Shown here piece by piece: positions 1-42,952 of a stretch of 64,000 nucleotides of DNA (its first letter is position 1; every line of letters begins with the position of its first letter). The stretch covers positions 8,577,383 through 8,641,382 of the forward strand of contig NC_135252.1 of the NCBI RefSeq assembly GCF_964204865.1. The letters run 5' to 3'. The notes under the pieces are model-generated. The model made no database searches and was not told the DNA's origin. It saw only the letters and a program-made list of their open reading frames with translations. Source of the DNA: Styela clava. Lineage: Eukaryota; Chordata; Ascidiacea; Stolidobranchia; Styelidae. The translations under genes and the position numbers were made by a program.

Positions 1-18
1 CCGGAATTATTTTCAACG

Positions 19-312
19 ATGTTGAAAAATTGGCGACCTATTGCAAACTTAAACGTTGACTACAAGATCATGGCAAAAATTATATCAACCTGCCTTAAAA
101 AAGTGCTGGATGGTGTTATCACAAAGACCCACGAATCGACCCAGACTGGAGGATCTATCCAAAACTTTCACAACAACCTATACACTGTAATACGTCATTC
201 TCGTGAGAAGAACCTCTCAACATTTGCCATGACGGTAGACCAACTTAAAGCCTTTAACATGGTCGACCACAAGGTTGCCAACTTTGTGTTAAGCCATTCC
301 GGGACACCTTAA
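19..312 (+). pseudogene. LINE reverse transcriptase fragment
   Basis: An open stretch of about 97 codons resembles the start of a non-LTR retrotransposon reverse transcriptase: the NWRPIANLNVDYKIMAKI block, then a Q-x-G-G-S-I segment, and a palm-like FAMTVDQLKAFNMVDH that corresponds to the usual D-x-x-K-A-F-D-x-V-D-H (the last Asp is Asn here). The catalytic YxDD region is absent because the sequence stops matching near 300. I see a truncated L1-like or related LINE copy that has lost its active-site parts; the clade is uncertain. The element may extend left of the window. Confidence 0.75.
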
Positions 313-6901: not shown

Positions 6902-9900
6902 ATGGAGAGTTTTGATTGGATATTTTTCATTTATGATGATGACTTGATTCTGACAGAAGAAGATGATCCCGCGGAAGCGATATCATATTTTTATCCACAG
7001 TCGGTGAGTCGTAGCCTAATCCTGTAAATGCTAAAAGGGTCGAGCATAGGGTCCAAGGGTCCATGCCTATCATGTTGCTATACTTTGTTTATCGTTTATT
7101 ACTTATCGATCTTAAGATCGGTAAGTATATTGATAGGTATTTGTATGTATGTCTGTCTGTCTGTTAGATGCACGCGATATCTCACGAAAGCGAGATTGAA
7201 TCTGCTCCAGATTTTGCATGTGCATTCATCTTATTTCGGACCAGAAACCTATTGATTTTGGGCGAATTATGTCGTATAATTAGCGAGTTATCAATCAATT
7301 ATTTATATAGTGATCTAGATTTTTGTAAAGCGAGAGAATTTTGAAACCCGCCGAGTGTGTGTGTGCGATGCGCAGTGCGCAAGTTACAAGAGCGGATGAA
7401 TCGAAACTGCAGTTTCTGTTTTGGGGGATCCCCTAACTATCGATCGATAAGTCTTCGGTTTCCAACCGATATTCTCGTAATTGTGTATTGATAATTATTT
7501 ACGGTATATTGCGAAAATAAATCCAAATTAATGTATTTGTAGTTAAATCGGCAAATTTTCTTAGGTTTTGGTACGAATAAGTCCAGAAGTCCATGCATCT
7601 GAAAACAAATAACTGGCTTAATAATTCCATACTGAACATGGACTGGTACAAAAGACTAAATAAATATTGTATATCATCTATAGCTTATTCCTGTATTTTT
7701 GTCACATTCTCATGTAAATATCTGCCCACAGATTTGTCTTGAGTCTTAGTTGATTTATCAGAGGAATAAGTAAAGTCTTTTCCAAGGTTTCTTCTATTCA
7801 ATCATGAGGTGCTGTAAAGGCATGCGTACATGCCTTTACTTTTTTACATTCACGACTCGACTCAAGAATTGGAATCTTTGGAAAAATCTGACATGTTTGG
7901 CCTTGTTTGCTAGTTCATTAATCGAAATACATGTTGATGATAATGTGACTCTTCTCAAATTCTTTCCTTTAGGAATAGACTGTCTTAGATTACTAAAAGA
8001 ATCGCATATTAAGTTCCAGCCTGCTGTGTTCTATAACTGTGTTATTTGCCTATATATGCTGACATAAAAGTAATGCATTACAGCATTTTGATCCATAATA
8101 CAGTTGTACGTAAGCCATTATAAAATTGGATATATTGATATAATAAGTTTTGTAACGAATATAGCCTACATATAGCCTCGGATTTTCTCAAATTCTTTCG
8201 GTGGAAGGACATCAATAATTAACTTAATATGTTTGCTGCGCTGGAACTTGTACTGATTTTTATTGAAAAATTACTTTTAGATGACAATGGATTACCAACG
8301 TTTATTAAGTGGACATTTGATTGGTCTTTACAGAAGTGTTACAAAACTGCTGGGTAGTCCACCTGAAATCATAAAATTTGGAAAAAAGAAGTTTACTATG
8401 TTAAAGTCTGAAAAGTTTGCTATTGTAAGATGTACATTGTGCTTTAAAATATTTGACTGTTTTAAAACTTGCATTACTAGAACTAAACACAATTAACCAA
8501 CATACATATATCAAACAGCTGAAACTTGTAATAAATGTTGCAAATACTTGTTTATTAATAACTACTACTAAATATTATTCAAAAACACATAGTATAGGTA
8601 GTTTAAACAATACTATGTGTTGTAATCGATATATCAGTTTCTAGGTGTTCCAGTGGACAAACATTCTGACATGGCAACTATAAATATGTGCGAGTTCATT
8701 GTTGATGTACTTTTGTTTTTTAATTCATCGATCAACTATCTAATAGTGAGTTAACCTTATTTTATATCAAGTTAATCATTAAATTGGCTCAAACTAGCTA
8801 CCCAAGCAGCCCAAAGGTCTCGTAATAGTTGAACCAGAATCAGTAGGTTGTTGATACTATATATTTTCATGAGTCTCATCAAACTACGACATAATCATAG
8901 GCTATGGAATTAGTTAGCCAGTTATTCGTTTCAGATGCATGGATGGTAGTGGTCGTAAAACCAACCTATGGGGATGAGGAGTCCAGCAATCCTGTCACAC
9001 ATTATTATTTCCCACAGGATGCGAACCAACGCACCTCCAAGCTGATATTCCAATGTTGGTTGTGGATGGTCTAAAAACAAAAAGGTTGATAAATCTCTAT
9101 ATCTTTAATATGATTCATTGATGTCAATATTGAGTTCAGTTTCTTCTCAGCTTGTCCGTATTTTCATAATTTCGAAAGTCATGAAAGCAGCATTCATCAA
9201 ACTTACTAGCAATTTATTTTATTCGTGTCTTGAAAGAATATTACCTGTATTGCAGGAATCAGAATTCGAAGAAAATCGGATTGATTTAATTCTGGATAAA
9301 ATATTCTCAAGTCATTGGATATTTTTAGAATTTCAGGCTTCATCTTTCATCAGTTATAATGGGGTAAATATAATTCATTTAAAAATTGAAAAAAACACTG
9401 TTCATGAAATTCTAGCGTTACGTCCTGCTGGCTCCCTGTACCAGTCTTATTTGACATGAAGTATTCCAAACATCCGCTTATTGCAGATCATTACCCCTTG
9501 AAGATAACCGTGCTTTGCTCGCTTTTTATTGCCTCATAAATGAGATAGGGACAGACAATTTTCAATTCACTAGTAAGTGTTCCATCAAACGGCACCAATG
9601 ATGGCACCAATCTCAATCAATACGGCCTCTATGTTGCTGTCTCAAATGTCTTGTTTTCACATAACAAAATCCCAAAAGCAACTATGGTATGTCACTGTCA
9701 TAAATCAAATCATGTAAACTGTTGGAGCTAGCTGAAGGAAGTCTAATCTGGTGGCTCCACTTTCTCTTCACAAAACATTTTCTTTCCTAGTTAAACCAAT
9801 CCATTATGTTGAAATGTGCAAATATACTTGACTTCTGCTCTAGACACAATGGAGTGTTTGGTAGTTGTTTACTTTTCCAAGACAGGTATTTTAAAAATGA

Positions 9901-33039: not shown

Positions 33040-33554
33040 GTTTAAAACCATATTATACAAATATATACTGGAACACGAACAGCAACATAAAGTCAAAATT
33101 GTACAGTAATGCTTATGATAAAATATGATTGTGATATATAGAATGTATTGGAAATGTTTAAACATGTCATCGCTTGAGATTATTGACATTGAATTCCATA
33201 TCAGCCCAATTTCACACCTTAATTTAATAATAATTATTGAATCTGGAGAAAATCTTGTCGGGGCAAGTTGAATCAAATTGGCAATGTATTCGTACATCTC
33301 TAGTCTAAATTTGCACCTTAGAATATTCTTATAGCTATTCTAGAAATGATCCAAATAACCTGACATCGATAGTTGTTTTACTTCATGCAATATTTAGATT
33401 AAAGTATTTTATATTCGGTAACATATATTTATTATATTTCACTGGATTGAAAGCGTCCTACTGTCCTAGTTTGACTGTACAGGCGCAACAGTAAAAACCG
33501 TCATTATATAAAAGTTGGTTGCCCGTACAAAGAATATTTATTAAAGACACCAGC
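33040..33554. other. Upstream region of PSENEN
   Basis: AT-rich sequence, presumably containing the PSENEN promoter. No TATA box or other control site can be called with confidence. An in-frame upstream TTG gives no plausible longer start. Confidence 0.4.
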
Positions 33555-33860
33555 ATGAATTTGGATAAGGCCACTAATGAGGAGAAATTGGATTTATGCC
33601 AAAAATATTACTATGGAGGATTTATATGCCTGCCATTTTTGTGGGCTGTGAATGTTGTATGGTTTGCAAAGGAGGCATTTATTAAACAACCTTACGAAGA
33701 ACAACCGAGAATTCGTACTTGTGTGATAAGATCAGCAATAGGAGCTACCTTATGGATTGCAGGACTTTTGACTTGGATTATAATATTTCAATTGAACAGA
33801 GCTAGTTGGGGAGCCTTTGCTGATCAAATATCTTTTATAATACCACAAGGTATACCTTGA
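33555..33860 (+). CDS. PSENEN: PSENEN (PEN-2), gamma-secretase subunit
   Basis: The smallest subunit of gamma-secretase, needed for presenilin endoproteolysis and activity in endomembranes and at the plasma membrane. One exon, 101 residues, the same length as human. The start [20 protein letters not shown] matches the family N-terminus, so the ATG at 33555 is chosen. The hydrophobic segments are [17 protein letters not shown] (about 19-35) and [17 protein letters not shown] (about 62-78). The C-terminal functional motif, DYLSF in human, reads DQISF here, followed by IIPQGIP against IPLGTP. Vertebrate orthologues are split by introns; this one is not. It lies 1 kb upstream of the voltage-sensor gene on the same strand. 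Confidence 0.97.
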
Positions 33861-34861: not shown

Positions 34862-37800
34862 ATGAATACAAACAATGATGCAGTCAGAATCTATGGAGAT
34901 CCTGATATTGTTGAAGAGATCGGAAAAACCAGTCTGTCTGAAGAATTACCAAAAACTAAGGAGTTAGAAACTAAAGATGTCATTCAACAAAATTCTCCAG
35001 TGAATGACCATAGTTCCAATAAGCAAAAGTGAGTTTCTTTCAAACATTCAGAGCATTTCTAGTCGGTAAAATATATCCAATTTCTCAGTAATTAGGTTAT
35101 ACGATTTCTCGTGGGGTGGTTTCAACCAGGGATGTCCAGTACGAGTCGGATTTTTGAATATATTCGAAATTCATTATAATATGGCATGAAAAAATTTGAA
35201 TTTAGGAACAATTCAGAATATAGCATTCTGAGCCATCGTTTTGGATGCAGTCAACAAAGATATAGTTTTGTGTAATTTTCCACATAAACTTGCCCCCAAT
35301 TTAGAATGTATTCAAATTTTATTTCTCGGAGTAGTGAAATATTCGATCTTGGCCATCCCTGGTTACAACTTATAGGACTAGGGCTTTTATTCCAATAATT
35401 GGTATGGTGTATGCCTGGACTAGTAAAACGACTAAATTTCCACTTTTAGTCGAAGATTTTTTTTGTAGCAAATTTTCATGAAAATAATCCATTGATGATG
35501 TAAAATTCTCACTTAGAGATATTGTCTGTATAGGAACACTGTGATAAAGAGTGTTCTATCATGTAATATTAGCAATACCTATTCCTTCTGGAGTTATGTC
35601 AAGTGCTTTGTTGAACAATGAGGACAAAATTTCAAAGCTCTTTAATTTTAGTTTTAACACAATTAGAACCTACTGTACTTATGGTAAAAAAAAGCACACT
35701 CTTCAAGTAATGGAGATACTTAGAATTTACAAAAAATATTTGTTGTACGTTGAGTTTATCTCCAGGCAGGAAAATGAAGAAAAAAGGTCACTTCTGAGAT
35801 TATTAGTCTTATAGATTTTTAAATACTATGATCCATGGTCCTTTACCAGAGACACTCAACACTTGGGGCCCCCTGCATTTTTACAGCATATCAATCAGTT
35901 ATTTATGTGCCCGATTTAATAATAAAAAGCCAATTTGGGGGGCACTTCAATCTCCTTTTGAAAGCTATTTAATTGATTCCTAATTCAGAAACATAACAAC
36001 ATTGTGTTGTTGTGGTCAATCTAATGATGAGAATGATTCTGCTAGTTTGGAACCTGCTGGATCAACTGCTTTATATCATCAACAAGTTGAACAAACGGAA
36101 AATAAGCAACAGAAAGGTATATTGTTATCATTATTAAGATTATGAAATACTGAAATTGTATTGAACTTGGCGAATACAATTATGGAAGTTAGGCTTAATA
36201 ATACAATATATGAAATTCAATGAAGCTCAAGTTATCCCTATCCCTGAAAAAAAAGTTTTGTATTCTAAGTAAATAAGCATATCAATGTGTAATTGGTTTT
36301 TGAATGTAGACGCATGAAGTTGTACATTGCTATTATTAAAGATTTAGAACTACTAGACTTACTGGCATTAATAATTAATCGAATTTAAGCTACCGGTAAA
36401 TAAACATGACCTACACAGTCAGCTTAGTAAATGACTCTCTCAAAAAAGTATAATGTAGTCAAAGTTAATTAAAATATGTATATCAAAATAGTCGGATTAG
36501 TTTTTGAATGCAAGTGCATGAACTGGTTTACATTGTACATTGCTAGAAGACAAGTGGTTTGCAACCCTTGCAATGGACCTTTTAATGATTGGTCGTGAAT
36601 TCCTTTCAATAAAAACTTATAATATTGTTGAGTAGTGCAAACGAAACTGGGTAAAACGTTTATATGAACTTGATTAATAAAAACTTCTTGAATAGTTCTC
36701 AGAATGAAATGGACCCTTCTATATATGAATAATATCTTGGTTACATTGTGGCTGGCTAATGGTCATTTTACCATTTAATTTTTAACTTATGGATGCCTCA
36801 AGATCTATCTGTGGAACACTGGAAATCCATGGACCTCCACTGTACTAAAGTTACTTTTATTAAAAGATTATATTTTACTCTAATTCCAGATTTTTCGTTT
36901 GAAATGAGATCATTCCTGGACAGTCCTGTCTACTACATATATGTGATAATTGTTTCTTTCACTCTTTCAATTCTTTTATTGGTCGAACTTTTCATTGATG
37001 CAGGACTATTTCATGGTAAGTTGGTTATTATATTTTCATTTACACACCATTGATCTCTTATTACATAATTGGCGAGTTAAAACATAGGTAAGAACGTTCA
37101 TGTGAGATATTCGTTCAACAAACTTTTCAATTCGTTTCTAATATTTTAAGTATGGATATCATTATGGAATATTCATATATTGGTTTATCAGATACTTTTG
37201 ATTTTGAATAATATAGGTTTTAGCATGATCGAATATATTATGACTTGCTCCTGCTAAAAATCAGTAATTTTGATTTTTCCAAATCTTGAAAAATATCTTT
37301 CGCATTCGACTCAAATTAAAATTTTAAATCTAATCCTTGAGGTTTTTTTTTTATCTTTTTTAATACAAACTGCGTTTTAATAATATTGTTCAGTGGATGA
37401 CTCTGAAGCAATCCGACAATCAACCCCACAACATGACAATACTAAAAGTGTGTCAACAGCTCTTCATTGGTTTTCATTTGCTTTGCTGGCAATATTTTTC
37501 ATTGAGGTATGTATTCATTTTTTTAGCATATTTTCATATTATGTATGCTATGTTTTCAAAAATACCTCGGCATCATTATGATATCTGAACATAATTTGAT
37601 TGACTTTGATTCGAACCTAAGTAATAATATCATTTTAGAAATTTGTAAACATCTGAGGGTGGCTATTCTTTTTTTTTTATTCACATGCAACATGATGTTA
37701 CCCTTGATTTCCAGTTTGATTCTTCATGAAATCCCATGTTCAAAATTTCATGAAATGTGTTTGAGTATACCATATATATAACCTGACAGAAAATTATTTG

Positions 37801-40800
37801 ATGCCACTTTGGTATGCGATCTCACTTGGTTAACGTGATCTCACTCGCATTTCAAAGTGGCACCACAATTGGTCTCATAATGAAATTCTCTTCGAATTCA
37901 GTTATTAATCCCAACACTAGATAAAATTACTGAGATCGCATACCAAAGAAGCACCAATTACCACCAAGTTATTTTGGAAAATCTTTATGGTCTGATTTTT
38001 TAGGATCTGTTTTCTTCGTTGCAATTTATATCATGAATCACGAGTCTCAGATGATCCAGTAAATTTGTTTACTGTCGTTATGAAATATTTATCGCCTCAG
38101 GGCTCAGTTGAATATTGTTTTTTATTCATATTAATCATCCCAAATTTTAAAAAATATCTCATAGTTGAAAAGCCTAAATCCCATGCTTTTGGATTTTTTT
38201 TACTTTTGCACTCATATTTCTTTTTTGATTTCCTTGGTTTTTGATTGAATATTCACTAGTCGCTACCTGTATCCATGACACAAATGTAATCCATTTAATT
38301 CATCATCCTCAGTATCTGAGGGGTCTTTATAAGATTTTCAATTATTAGTTTTTAGTGAGTGAATATAAATGAATCAAAGTATTTTGCTCACTCATAATCT
38401 TATTTTGTTTTAAGATTATAGTTCGAGGAGTTGCATGGAGATTTGCTTTAGCAAGAGATTTTGTTTCGGTTAGTATTTTTCTTACTTAAAATCCTAACTT
38501 TTACTTTCATTACTCTCTTGGTGGCAAATATGACTCTGTTTCGAAATAAGCTTAATTTTCGTTTTGTTCTCATTCTAACTGTAAAGTAAGGTAATAAGTT
38601 AATAACTGATCCAATTTTGTTCTTCATTGTCAGATATTCGACTGCATTGTCGTGTTTGTTGCATTTATATCGAATCTTTGTGTATCATTGATAGCAGGGG
38701 CTGATAGTCCAATTGACGGGATAAGCTTGATTATAATCTGCAGATTGATACGAATTCACTCTTTAATCAAAGGTAAGTGAAAATCTTGTAATGCGTTCGT
38801 ATGTAGTGTATTAAGAAGACTGTGGGTCATATTTTTTCAAAGTTTGCATCAATGACAAACATGCTTTTGCTTTTCATCCGCAAGTCTTATAATACTTGGC
38901 TCATGGCTGGTAATGTGTAATTTTAACCTTCACACATGTCACATCTATACCTTGACTGGGGCAATTTCTCATTTTATGGAATCTATGCAAAAAAATATGT
39001 AATGGGTTATTAAGGGCGCAATTCAAATCTGTTGAGTCTGTGACATCATAAATGGAAATACAAAAGGCACATCTTCGATAGAGTTGTAACACTGCGCACT
39101 TGTCAACATAAGCCTTGTCTATATCTATTTTCCAAGCGCTGTTGTAGCAGTTGAACTATTTTAGGATGTATGTTTCTATATTTCTTTCTTTGTTTTTGAT
39201 ACCAATACATTGACGATTGTCACCATGGATTCTACATTGACTTTCGTTAATTTTGAGCACCCATCGGGTGATTTGTTATCTCTCAATTGTAGGGATGGGC
39301 CGGGATTCGGATCCGGACTCGGATTCGAGTCGAATCCAGGCATTTTTTGACTCGGATTCGATTTCGAGTCCACATCATTTTTACTGAGTCCATAATCAAT
39401 TCTGTTTTTACTAATTTACGCCTATGTTTGTAAAAATCCCACTACATACCTTAACTAGTAAAATTCAAAGTTAGATCTGTAACAATATCCGTCGTGTGCA
39501 TTATAAACACTCCTAATAAAACGACGACAGATATCCAGATAATATAACGCAAGTTGAAATTATTGATCGCTTATAACAATGATGTTGCGCCAGTCGCCTT
39601 CAAACTATCTATCCTTTTCGGTATACATGTGGTACACAATAAAATATGTGTTAAATATTGTGTTATATCAAAAAGCTACTGCAATACACAATTTCGACAA
39701 ATATTGTTTTGCACTACCTCTAATTTAGTATTTATTTTTCTTTATGCAAGTTAAAGTAAGAATGGTGAAGAGAAGATATGAAGCACGACTGCAGCAAAAT
39801 GAAAGAGAACTATATACTGCAAACTGTAAAATAAGCACTCAATACAGACAAATTAAAGAAAAAGATGTGAGTACTGAATACTACTGATACTGATATATCA
39901 AACCTAGTTGCGTCTGGTATGTAATTAAATGATTATTTCTAAACAAAATCAATTGAATACAAATTTAGATATAAGATTAAACACTGATATTGAAAAAAAT
40001 TAAGAAAATTAATTTCTAATAAAAGATGGGATGGCTCCAGTAGTATGTGTACCAACATGGAGTTTTTTCGCCTACCTCACATCAAGTTGTGTAAAGGGAC
40101 GGAAGCCTGTGGGCCGGGCGTATATTTACTTGGCTAACACAGACAGTCCCCGAACTCGTAATAGAACTAAGATAGGAAAATCAGAATAAAATTATGGCCT
40201 AACGCTAACCTGGTACACCTACTATGGGAGTACCCGAAATGTTATTTAATTGACTGCTTGGTGACTGTAATCCAATATTACCACAAAAGCTTGTTATCGT
40301 ATATATATATATGAATATGTATTATCCAGATTCAATGTAAAACTTATCAATTACTGGTAGTCGAAACTGGTTATATCATGCTTAATTGCTACTTTGATGT
40401 TTGTAATCTTATAGTGATAATTACCTGACAGCGTAATTATATTGTGTAAAATGAAAAAGGTCAAACGAGGTTGAATTTTTGAACTTGAAGGTGTTGTTAT
40501 GTTAGATTCAAAAACTTAGCCTTGAGCTGTTTATTTCTTTATTAGGAGTCTGGATTGTTTGATAAGTTTATCGATAGTCACCACATAAACCGTAAGAAGA
40601 CAGTGTTACAGAAATGCGATATGCAAACTTAAGTTGTTGTTCCAAATGCTTTATAAATAAATCTTTTGTGCTGTCAATAATTGTTAAAATAAATGAAAGT
40701 TTAAAAATTGAAACATGGTATGGACTTTCAATTCATTTATGAATTTGTCGTGGTAATATTATGTTTTTGTTATTCCATTTTTTTCTTGATGAAAACAACC

Positions 40801-42952
40801 TGTAGCGCACTATAACATGAGTACCGAATATTACAGCATGTAACAATATATATTCCCTGTTTATGGGTTGCTGGGATGCAGAAATTACATGCCTGTGGAC
40901 TGTGGTATATATACAAAAATACCAATATACTCTTTTCCTTGCCTAAATATTCCCTTTTCTTCTAGTATGAAATCAAACAACTCCAAGCCTACCTTGGTGG
41001 AGGCACTTTGTCTGGTGATCCTCAGTTCATCGAAGCAATGAAGTCAAATTTGGATAATGATAAAAGCAAAGGTGCTACTGCTGATACAGACTTGGAAATG
41101 GCTCTTGCCCTGAGCAGGCAGACATTTGATGAGGTATGAAATGTTATAAATGAATCAAATGAGATTATCAATATTCGTTTAGTCTTGAATTGAATTTATA
41201 TTGCTTGGATAGGTTTTACGTATTTATCCCAGGAAAACGGAGATTTGTTTCAGATGCATGGACTTGATGGCTTGGAAATCAATTTCTACTTAGATTGTGA
41301 GCCACAATGCCAAAGGTGTATCAAATTATGTCATTAATTTTTCTATGTAGCGCAATGTGTTATTGTAAGGAACAGTAACTTTTCTGCATTATGGTGAGTG
41401 CAGTGAAACTATGTAAGGAAAACTCATTGAACCATTTTCTAGACTTTTATCGACTCAACCTTCACTGCTATACTAAAATATAAAAATTAAAATTTACAAG
41501 ATGTAGCAATCTTGATGCACGCTAACAGGAAAAAATACCAAGACTCGCTTTGCCACGTTACTATTAAGGTAAACAGATCACTTGGCCACATTAGGTGACG
41601 CCAATTCAATTTCATCACAGTAAACTTGACTGCAAATTTTTAGAGAGAATTAAGTGATAATGCTCATTATCTACCGTAATATAAGTAATCCGGCATGCTA
41701 ATTCATGATTTTCTTATTTCGTGTCATCCATAGGAGATTGGTGGTGGCGTTACAAACAAAGCATTTTCTCTTTCTAATGGCAAAGAACCATCAAATAATT
41801 ATACGAGCGATGAAGATCTCACAATCTTAGTTCATGAAAAACCTATTAGGATAAACAGGTATGCTAAAACAGCTATCTTGAACCATATTAGATTTTACTA
41901 TTCTTGAATATAGCCTCTTTAAAAGATCAAATTTTACAATGAATTCCAATGTCTGACTTTTCAGCCGAGATTCAGATGCAGAATCTAGTATGAAGGAGGC
42001 CAGCAATAATGATGATTTGTCACAGCCAATGAAAAACCTATTATCTGGTATAGTAGTATTATTAAAAATTTTATTCATCTTAATTTTCAATATTCTACCT
42101 AATTGGGAGTATCTGTGATGTGGAGTCGGGGAGAAAAGTTTTATCGAAGTCTGATGCCAAGCCATTCGAAAGGCTGAGTCAGAAGTTTCCTTGAAGAAAT
42201 TTACTCTAGGATTAAAATCATTCGGACTCTAATACCCAACCTCGGAAATCGGAATAACATAATTTCAATTCCAAATCTTAGAAATTTCGAATCTTGTATT
42301 TTGTTTAAAAAAATTAAGGTATAGTAATTTTTTCTGAGTAGTTCAAAGTAATAACTTCTATTTTTATGGCTTTGAGAACATCTGTATGTTTTATTTTTCA
42401 GATGATGCGTCTGTAAATCCTGATTCTGGCGCGATTCGAAAGAAGAAAAATTACAATTATATTACAAACTTAAACAGCAATAACAAAAATGGCATTGATA
42501 GTTTTGAAATATTAAAAAATAATTCTTCTATTCTTAATAATCCAGAGCCAGTCACAATATGCATTGACCCTAATATTTTAGAGTGCGCTGGAGAGGACAG
42601 TCTGTCCAATGGAAAATTACAAGATGACTGGTCAAGTTTACGTCATTGTGATTCGCTGACCAACAATCCAGATTTTAGTTCTCCAATCAATGACCATCCT
42701 CGGTCAACATTAAGCTCACCTCACAGTGACATGGGCTCTTCTGACGATTGTACTTTAGACTCCGTCACAACTCATAATGAAGAAAATCAAATTAAAACTT
42801 CGACAAAAATCTTGAAATCTGGAGATAAGAATTCCGGTTCATCTCTTAGTTCAGAATCAGGATATCTGAGTGAAGATATATGCCATGATAAAAAGTTGTC
42901 AATGCTTTCTGCGACTGATCACAAAAATGATATTGAGCTTGATGTCCTCTGA
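34862..42952 (+). CDS. Voltage-sensor-only protein (Hv1/TMEM266-like) with UIM
   Basis: Eleven exons: 34862-35028, 35989-36116, 36890-37015, 37394-37506, 38415-38468, 38634-38772, 39751-39866, 40966-41133, 41734-41858, 41965-42047, 42402-42952; all phases agree, about 589 residues. Domains: polar N-terminus (1-~105); four-helix voltage sensor, S1 ~113-135, S2 ~166-183, S3 ~197-218, S4 ~226-242; a coiled coil directly after S4 (~243-292) as in Hv1; DLEMALALSRQTFDE (~322-336), which fits a ubiquitin-interacting motif; then a long acidic Ser/Asn-rich tail. Aligned by eye with human Hv1: E119, D123, H140, E153 and D174 are kept and K157 is Arg; D112, the proton-selectivity Asp, is Leu124; D185 is Asn210; S4 has Arg233 and Arg236 but Ser239 instead of R211, and Lys242 for N214. 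There is no pore domain. The family is clear, but the subfamily (divergent Hv1 or TMEM266-like) and any current are not. Confidence 0.85.
35127..35361. mobile_element. Small hAT MITE in voltage-sensor gene intron 1
   Basis: Begins cagggatgtccag and ends ggccatccctg. Subterminal tattcga repeats occur in both orientations. Flanks gtttcaac (35119-35126) and gttacaac (35362-35369) form an 8-bp duplication with one mismatch. 235 bp. Confidence 0.8.
37803..37953. repeat. Inverted-repeat element in intron 4
   Basis: ccactttggtatgcgatctca at the left and tgagatcgcataccaaag at the right are inverted copies; a partial third copy (tcgcatttcaaagtggcacc) lies inside. MITE-like, about 150 bp. Confidence 0.7.
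39293..39390. repeat. Possible hAT-like end, gattcggatccgg-rich
   Basis: tagggatgggccgggattcg followed by several gactcggattcga repeats in both orientations. It resembles the left terminus of a short hAT element, but no matching right end was located in the same intron. Confidence 0.35.
40032..40235. mobile_element. MITE copy in intron 7
   Basis: Starts ggctccagtagtatgtgtacca and ends with the inverted form ggtacacctactatgggagta. Shares cacagacagtccccgaactc and cgtaatagaac with the MRM1 intron copy at 14127-14300. Confidence 0.8.

What the first reader, a model, noticed from the sequence alone, without database searches (positions are those of the whole stretch)
34862..42952. Voltage sensor fused to a coiled coil and an apparent ubiquitin-interacting motif
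The gene encodes a pore-less voltage-sensor domain followed directly by a coiled coil, as in Hv1, and then DLEMALALSRQTFDE, which fits the UIM consensus (acidic run, hydrophobic, A-x-x-x-S). I know of no described Hv1 or TMEM266 protein with a UIM. If real, it suggests a membrane voltage sensor that binds ubiquitinated cargo or is itself regulated by ubiquitin, with a ~250-residue acidic Ser/Asn-rich tail for further contacts.
Basis: partly seen in the sequence, partly recalled or inferred. Interest (0 to 1): 0.75.

Follow-up and report, generated by a model that had tools for sequence, protein, structure and literature searches.

The report
Ascidian voltage sensor with ubiquitin-binding-like motif
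A sea-squirt gene makes a pore-less membrane voltage sensor carrying a short helix that looks like a ubiquitin-binding motif; the core of that helix is unchanged in the six sea-squirt proteins found, so it is probably functional, though binding has not been tested.

Summary
Window 34862-42952 (+) encodes an 11-exon, 589-aa protein, 585/589 identical to Styela clava LOC120342161: voltage sensor, coiled coil, UIM-like helix (aa 321-337, exon 8), acidic Ser/Asn-rich tail.

The UIM core A-x-x-L-S is invariant in 6 of 6 ascidian proteins, in the best conserved stretch of an otherwise diverged tail. A 23-residue profile finds ataxin-3's UIMs first in the PDB (E 1.2e-5; best single repeat 0.0016); Pfam UIM matches 6 of 6 segments (E 0.00084-0.16); column shuffles find no UIM. 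Against: nothing reaches Pfam's 21-bit cut-off, and whole-protein scans are weak or empty; but 4 of 9 recalled UIM peptides also miss it.

The protein is nearer TMEM266 than Hv1 (92.4 vs 63.8 bits; human sequences recalled) and lacks Hv1's selectivity Asp in 6 of 6. TMEM266 was reported as vertebrate-only. Likeliest: a non-conducting dimeric sensor presenting two ubiquitin-binding helices for ubiquitin-dependent sorting or self-regulation. Ubiquitin binding is untested.

The parts
34862..42952 (+). Whole coding region, 11 exons, 589 aa (Styela clava LOC120342161 isoform X1-like)
36925..37011 (+). S1 (aa 111-139, ends chosen by eye): E131 and D135 kept, nonpolar L124 where Hv1 has the selectivity Asp112
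37453..38441 (+). S2 (aa 161-187, spans the exon 4/5 intron): H165, F175, E178
38466..38699 (+). S3 (aa 196-218, spans the exon 5/6 intron): D199
38715..38771 (+). S4 (aa 224-242): R233 and R236 kept, third Arg replaced by S239
38772..40995 (+). Coiled coil continuous with S4 (aa 243-291, exons 6-8)
40966..41133 (+). Exon 8, 168 nt, phase 0-0: end of coiled coil plus UIM-like helix; Pfam UIM E 0.0079, 16.4 bits on the exon alone
41014..41061 (+). First UIM-like element (aa 298-313), poorly supported: Pfam UIM_2 in 1 of 7 segments; window has N309 where P0001 has S309
41083..41133 (+). UIM-like helix DTDLEMALALSRQTFDE (aa 321-337); core LEMALALS at 41092-41115
41746..41766 (+). G-x-x-N-x-[AGS]-[FY] element (aa 342-348), 6 of 6 proteins; resembles PTB/NPxY-type sorting signals (label recalled)
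42851..42877 (+). SESGYLSED (aa 557-565), kept in 5 of 6; resembles a beta-TrCP phosphodegron (label recalled)

Best explanation
A TMEM266-like, pore-less and probably non-conducting voltage sensor of ascidians. It dimerises through the coiled coil that continues S4, so each dimer presents two UIM-type helices just under the membrane. Shown by sequence: the order of parts and the conserved UIM core. Inferred: dimerisation, non-conduction, and weak ubiquitin binding with the dimer adding avidity. The likeliest use is endocytic, as in Eps15-type proteins: the UIM either draws in ubiquitinated partners at the plasma membrane or brings in an E3 ligase so that the sensor itself is ubiquitinated, internalised and turned over. 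Because S4 and the coil form one helix, membrane voltage might change how the UIM is exposed; that last step is speculative.
For: UIM core A327/L330/S331 invariant in 6 of 6, with L or M at 324 and I or L at 328. Most conserved 11-mer of the tail between the groups P0001-P0003 and P0004-P0006: mean BLOSUM for aa 320-338 2.19, against 1.92 for the sensor and -0.50 for the tail. The segment profile's first PDB hit is ataxin-3's UIM pair (whole-sequence E 1.2e-5, best single repeat 0.0016); two USP25 chains follow weakly at 0.11 and 0.68. Pfam UIM matches 6 of 6 segments, E 0.00084-0.16. Two column-shuffled profiles give no UIM: 0 PDB hits and 0 of 6 in Pfam for the first, ERCC-6 chains only in the PDB for the second. 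Nine recalled known UIM peptides score 16.2 to 30.8 bits, one not at all; Styela 18.5. Both AlphaFold2 models make the motif the last long helix before the disordered tail (pLDDT about 55-63 in the Styela model). Nearer TMEM266: 92.4 vs 63.8 bits over sensor plus coil, coil alone 20.6 vs 2.0; nonpolar at Hv1 Asp112 in 6 of 6. Human TMEM266 dimerises through its coil-bearing C-terminal part (passages of PMC6392501). Eps15 joins a dimerising coiled coil to UIMs, and its UIMs are needed for its own monoubiquitination (passages of PMC2767346). Possible sorting-type elements in the tail (labels recalled).
Against: No UIM score reaches Pfam's cut-off of 21 bits. Whole-protein scans of P0004 and P0006 list no UIM and that of P0005 only E 6. 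The PDB search listed only 4 distinct sequences up to E 10, one of them (CAL1) of unknown UIM status, and not the other UIM proteins of known structure that I recall. The acidic patch before the core is thin in Phallusia. The third S4 arginine is lost in 6 of 6, so voltage sensing may be weak. Human TMEM266 (recalled sequence) shows no such motif in the alignment (not scanned with Pfam). No binding, localisation or expression data exist here; models have low confidence (mean pLDDT 44.4 and 42.3).
Confidence: 0.5

Rival explanations
1. The helix is a conserved amphipathic segment with another job, such as capping the coiled coil or binding a non-ubiquitin partner, and resembles a UIM only because UIMs are short and low in information.
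For: Scores stay below the curated cut-off. A strict regular expression occurs by chance in about 2% of shuffled proteins. The profile also hits CAL1, whose UIM status I do not know, and few of the UIM proteins of known structure. Two relatives show no UIM in whole-protein scans and a third only E 6.
Against: The invariant positions are the UIM's Ala and Ser plus a neighbouring Leu; the best PDB hit is an established UIM protein; shuffled columns lose the UIM hits.
Confidence: 0.25
2. The helix is a UIM-fold motif whose main ligand is a ubiquitin-like domain (for instance of ubiquilin or parkin) rather than ubiquitin.
For: Eps15 UIM1 is reported to prefer the ubiquilin Ubl domain over ubiquitin, and the parkin Ubl binds Eps15 UIMs (passages).
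Against: Nothing in the sequence favours a Ubl; the closest matches are ataxin-3 and USP25.
Confidence: 0.12
3. It is an Hv1-type proton channel with an added tail.
For: Best PDB sequence matches are an Hv1 chimera and human Hv1 (3wkv E 1.1e-4, 5oqk 0.0027); Zn-site residues E, D and H are kept in 6 of 6.
Against: Hv1's selectivity Asp112 is L, I or V and the third S4 Arg is S or T in 6 of 6; TMEM266 scores higher than Hv1 in 5 of 5 proteins compared.
Confidence: 0.03
4. Chance: an unselected look-alike in a disordered tail.
For: Single-protein chance of the motif is not negligible.
Against: Same aligned place in 6 of 6, in the best conserved block of a tail that is otherwise poorly conserved.
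Confidence: 0.03

Closest known systems
TMEM266 / HVRP1 / C15orf27 (vertebrate voltage sensor, PMC6392501, PMC4148356)
   Same: Pore-less S1-S4; nonpolar residue at Hv1's Asp112; Zn-site E, D, H; segment before S4 of the form [ST]-P-x-[DN]-[AGS]-I-[SC]-L; coiled coil ending [FY]-E-[IV]-[KR]-Q-L-x-A-x-L; long disordered tail
   Different: 24.9-29.4% identity in the 5 proteins compared against more than 50% within the published family; third S4 Arg, K213, D217 and coil Cys252 not kept; tail shows no similarity (0.3 bits); UIM-like helix absent from the recalled human sequence
Hv1 (HVCN1)
   Same: Voltage sensor followed directly by a coiled coil
   Different: No selectivity Asp and no third S4 Arg, no S4 Trp; weaker coil match; Hv1 ends at the coil
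Ubiquitin-interacting motif (PF02809), as in ataxin-3, USP25, Hrs, S5a
   Same: Hydrophobic-x-x-Ala-hydrophobic-x-Leu-Ser core with acidic residues before it
   Different: Below the Pfam cut-off; sits in a membrane voltage sensor
Eps15 (PMC2767346, passages)
   Same: Dimerising coiled coil and UIM in one protein
   Different: Cytosolic adaptor with EH domains, no transmembrane part (recalled)

Membership tests
UIM (PF02809) | Hydrophobic-x-x-Ala-x-x-x-Ser core | tested here: met
   6 of 6 proteins
UIM (PF02809) | Curated Pfam score (21 bits) | tested here: not met
   12.6 whole protein, 16.4 exon 8, 12.3-19.4 for six segments; 4 of 9 recalled UIM peptides also miss it, though one of those four (Rap80 UIM2) passes its own family RAP80_UIM
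UIM (PF02809) | Acidic residues before the core | tested here: met
   at least one D or E within three residues before the hydrophobic position in 6 of 6; only one in Phallusia
UIM (PF02809) | Single alpha helix | tested here: inconclusive
   Helix 318-338 (Styela) and 303-324 (Ciona) in two models of low confidence built on the same six sequences
UIM (PF02809) | Binds ubiquitin | not testable with these tools
   needs a binding assay
TMEM266 | Sequence closer to TMEM266 than to Hv1 | tested here: met
   92.4 vs 63.8 bits for the profile; 5 of 5 proteins compared; human sequences recalled, TMEM266 checked at 17 of 17 printed residues and length 531
TMEM266 | Identity above 50% as stated for the published family | tested here: not met
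   24.9-29.4% in 5 of 5 compared (criterion)
TMEM266 | Charge-transfer centre F149, E152, D174 | tested here: met
   6 of 6
TMEM266 | Zn-site E118, D122, H139 | tested here: met
   6 of 6
TMEM266 | Three S4 arginines R-x-x-R-x-x-R | tested here: not met
   first two in 6 of 6, third is S or T in 6 of 6
TMEM266 | K213, D217, coil Cys252 | tested here: not met
   none of the three kept in any of 6
TMEM266 | Coiled coil after S4 | tested here: met
TMEM266 | Voltage-dependent movement without conduction | not testable with these tools
   needs electrophysiology
Hv1 | Selectivity Asp112 in S1 | tested here: not met
   L, I or V in 6 of 6
Hv1 | Third S4 Arg | tested here: not met
   S or T in 6 of 6

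The most novel reading that the evidence does not exclude
Voltage-controlled ubiquitin recognition: a TMEM266-like sensor whose S4 movement, passed along the S4-coil helix, changes exposure of its paired UIMs, so that membrane potential directly decides which ubiquitinated membrane proteins are held, sorted or internalised. This would be a new output for a voltage sensor besides pores, phosphatase and proton conduction.
Probability: 0.12. Interest if true: 0.9.

Novelty: new variant of a known kind. Interest (0 to 1): 0.6.

Why it matters
What TMEM266 does is reported as unknown (passage of PMC13095418; abstract start). A conserved, small, testable candidate binding motif in ascidian relatives offers a concrete lead to an output, at least in ascidians, and TMEM266-like proteins appear outside the vertebrates, to which the family was said to be restricted; Ciona makes it testable. 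If the motif binds ubiquitin, it links membrane potential to ubiquitin-dependent traffic.

Tried and rejected
A tandem UIM was considered because a first UIM-like element (aa 298-313) precedes the main one. It was rejected as unproven: 1 of 7 segments matches UIM_2 (E 0.0092; presumably P0003, which matches there); among 12 PDB sequences listed for its profile none is named as a UIM protein; its Ser is N in the window and absent in Ciona, Phallusia and Clavelina. A double-sided UIM like that of Hrs (recalled) was considered and dropped: the second face is not kept (sequence). Rfam on the window: 0 matches. The profile search with A1 brought no new protein. A literature search for the PTB-type signal found no paper with all four terms; 31 papers held UIM terms with 'ion channel', of which 20 were seen as a listing and none opened on that ground. 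No rooted tree was made, so orthology to TMEM266 is argued from scores and shared features only. A search of the genome for an Hv1 paralogue, and for other UIM exons as a calibration, did not complete.
Full report
Gene. The 11-exon model runs from ATG 34862 to the stop ending at 42952, all introns GT/AG, 589 residues. A protein search returned Styela clava LOC120342161 isoform X1 (P0001) over the full length; four residues differ, 585 of 589 identical. P0001 searched against the window's own genome (376.6 Mb, 379 contigs; 13 candidates scored) matched 11 pieces at E <= 0.001, all in this locus. Taxid 7725 is Styela clava, an ascidian tunicate of the order Stolidobranchia.

Relatives. Three searches gave six distinct proteins in all: P0001, P0002 (63%) and P0003 (41%) from unnamed contigs, P0004 Ciona intestinalis LOC100176869 (31% over 69% of the query), P0005 Phallusia mammillata and P0006 Clavelina lepadiformis (49% and 44% to the Ciona region). 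The profile search found the first four again. None of the three listed a vertebrate TMEM266 or an Hv1 at E <= 0.01; candidates are chosen by exact words and length, and were capped near 8000, so this does not show absence. P0002 and P0003 lie on contigs of 1930 and 2998 bases that hold the whole open frame, so they look like spliced transcripts (inference); that they are ascidian is inferred from similarity.

The motif. In alignment A2 the block reads DTDLEMALALS (Styela), DTDLQMAIALS (P0002), DADLEMAIALS (P0003), DDQLQKAINLS (Ciona), QSDMEKALALS (Phallusia), ESELERAIALS (Clavelina). A327, L330 and S331 are invariant in 6 of 6. Scoring each P0001 column between the group P0001-P0003 and the group P0004-P0006, the best 11-residue window of the tail is centred on residue 332 (2.95); residues 320-338 average 2.19, the sensor 1.92, the coil 1.31 and the tail 292-589 -0.50. 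The grouping is mine, by similarity.

Profile evidence. Whole proteins against Pfam: UIM in the window protein at 12.6 bits, E 0.13; P0001 0.12, P0002 0.07, P0003 0.23; P0005 only E 6; P0004 and P0006 none. Other weak families appear beside it in some of these scans, for example Tetraspanin at E 0.0082 in P0003 and SH3b_P2 at 0.066 in P0002, all below their cut-offs. Dividing E 0.13 by 24736 models gives a single-model chance of about 5e-6 for the window protein (my arithmetic). Exon 8 alone: 16.4 bits, E 0.0079. The six 23-residue segments: 18.5, 19.4, 19.3, 16.5, 12.3 and 13.9 bits, E 0.0017, 0.00084, 0.00097, 0.0073, 0.16 and 0.049, with UIM_2 as the only other family. None reaches 21. The 23-column profile against the PDB gave four distinct sequences up to E 10: ataxin-3 2klz 1.2e-5 (two repeats; the better one alone 0.0016), USP25 0.11 and 0.68, and CAL1 6xwt 0.48; other UIM proteins of known structure that I recall were not listed. 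Cutting the segment was guided by the motif, so these scores favour it. The controls are two column shuffles, which gave no PDB hit and five ERCC-6 chains at 0.34, and for the first shuffle 0 of 6 Pfam matches; the second was not run through Pfam. A strict expression occurs by chance in 325 to 542 of 20000 shuffles per protein.

The sensor. A profile of sensor plus coil from the six proteins scores it at 92.4 bits against 63.8 for human Hv1 (also recalled; its sensor part agrees with the 5oqk alignment); sensor alone 56.9 against 44.4; coil alone 20.6 against 2.0; tail 0.3 against none. Pairwise, 5 of 5 proteins compared score higher with TMEM266 (77.0-98.6 bits) than with Hv1 (27.3-43.1); P0002 was not run. 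In one search, in 6 of 6: E131, D135, H165, F175, E178, D199, R233 and R236 are kept; Hv1's Asp112 is nonpolar; the third S4 Arg is S or T; TMEM266's K213, D217 and Cys252 are not kept. PMC6392501 states that TMEM266 orthologues are restricted to vertebrates and share over 50% identity; these proteins share 24.9-29.4% over the aligned part. I therefore call them TMEM266-like, and orthology likely but unproven. PMC10377628 (section 16 read; passages) mentions other tunicate sensor proteins; its main text names Styela once, for a phosphatase, and not this locus; its supplement was not read.

Mechanism. Shown: order of parts, conserved UIM core. Supported by related work: human TMEM266 dimerises through its coil-bearing C-terminal part (passages), and Eps15 combines a dimerising coil with UIMs that are needed for its own monoubiquitination (passages of PMC2767346). 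Inferred: two UIMs per dimer under the membrane, weak ubiquitin binding, a role in sorting or self-ubiquitination. Two further conserved elements would fit such a role: G-x-x-N-x-[AGS]-[FY] shortly after the core in 6 of 6, which reads GFVNPSF in Phallusia and GIFNPAY in Clavelina, and S-E-S-G-Y-x-S-[ED]-[ED] in 5 of 6. Their labels as PTB-type signal and beta-TrCP degron are recalled and come from no call. Voltage control of the UIM is a guess resting on S4 and coil being one helix in two low-confidence models, and the missing third arginine speaks for a weaker sensor.

Print. No paper held 'voltage-sensor domain' with 'ubiquitin interacting motif'; one held 'ubiquitin-interacting motif' with 'voltage sensor', on KCNQ1 and engineered deubiquitinases (listing only); 12 held TMEM266 with ubiquitin, none about TMEM266 itself by title (listing); 7 held TMEM266 with Ciona (listing); the word ubiquitin does not occur in the main texts of PMC6392501, PMC13095418, PMC4148356 and PMC10377628. 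These cover open-access papers only.

Verdict.

Noticed in passing
window 33495-33857 (+): An open frame holding a full-length PEN-2 domain (presenilin enhancer 2, PF10251 E 3.1e-38) lies about 1 kb upstream of the sensor gene on the same strand.
   Followed up: partly
window 42851-42877 (aa 557-565): SESGYLSED, second best conserved block of the tail, kept in 5 of 6 proteins and lost in Phallusia; resembles a beta-TrCP phosphodegron (label recalled).
   Followed up: partly
window 41746-41766 (aa 342-348): G-x-x-N-x-[AGS]-[FY] in 6 of 6, NPxF or NPxY in two species: a possible PTB-domain sorting signal next to the UIM (label recalled).
   Followed up: partly
window 41818-41844 (aa 366-374): Invariant V-H inside a conserved element (VHHR in 4 of 6, followed by x-NSI in Ciona, Phallusia and Clavelina), unexplained.
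   Followed up: no
aa 239, window 38760-38762: The third S4 arginine is Ser or Thr in 6 of 6 proteins, unusual for a voltage sensor.
   Followed up: partly
aa 309, exon 8: Window has Asn where the public Styela protein has Ser, at the Ser position of the first UIM-like element.
   Followed up: partly
window 1-309 (+): Piece of a reverse transcriptase (PF00078 E 6.2e-9), probably a retroelement.
   Followed up: no
PDB 6xwt chain E, residues 736-753: Chain labelled Chromosome alignment defect 1 (CAL1, recalled) matches the ascidian UIM profile, including residues after the core (E 0.48); whether it is a known UIM was not checked.
   Followed up: no
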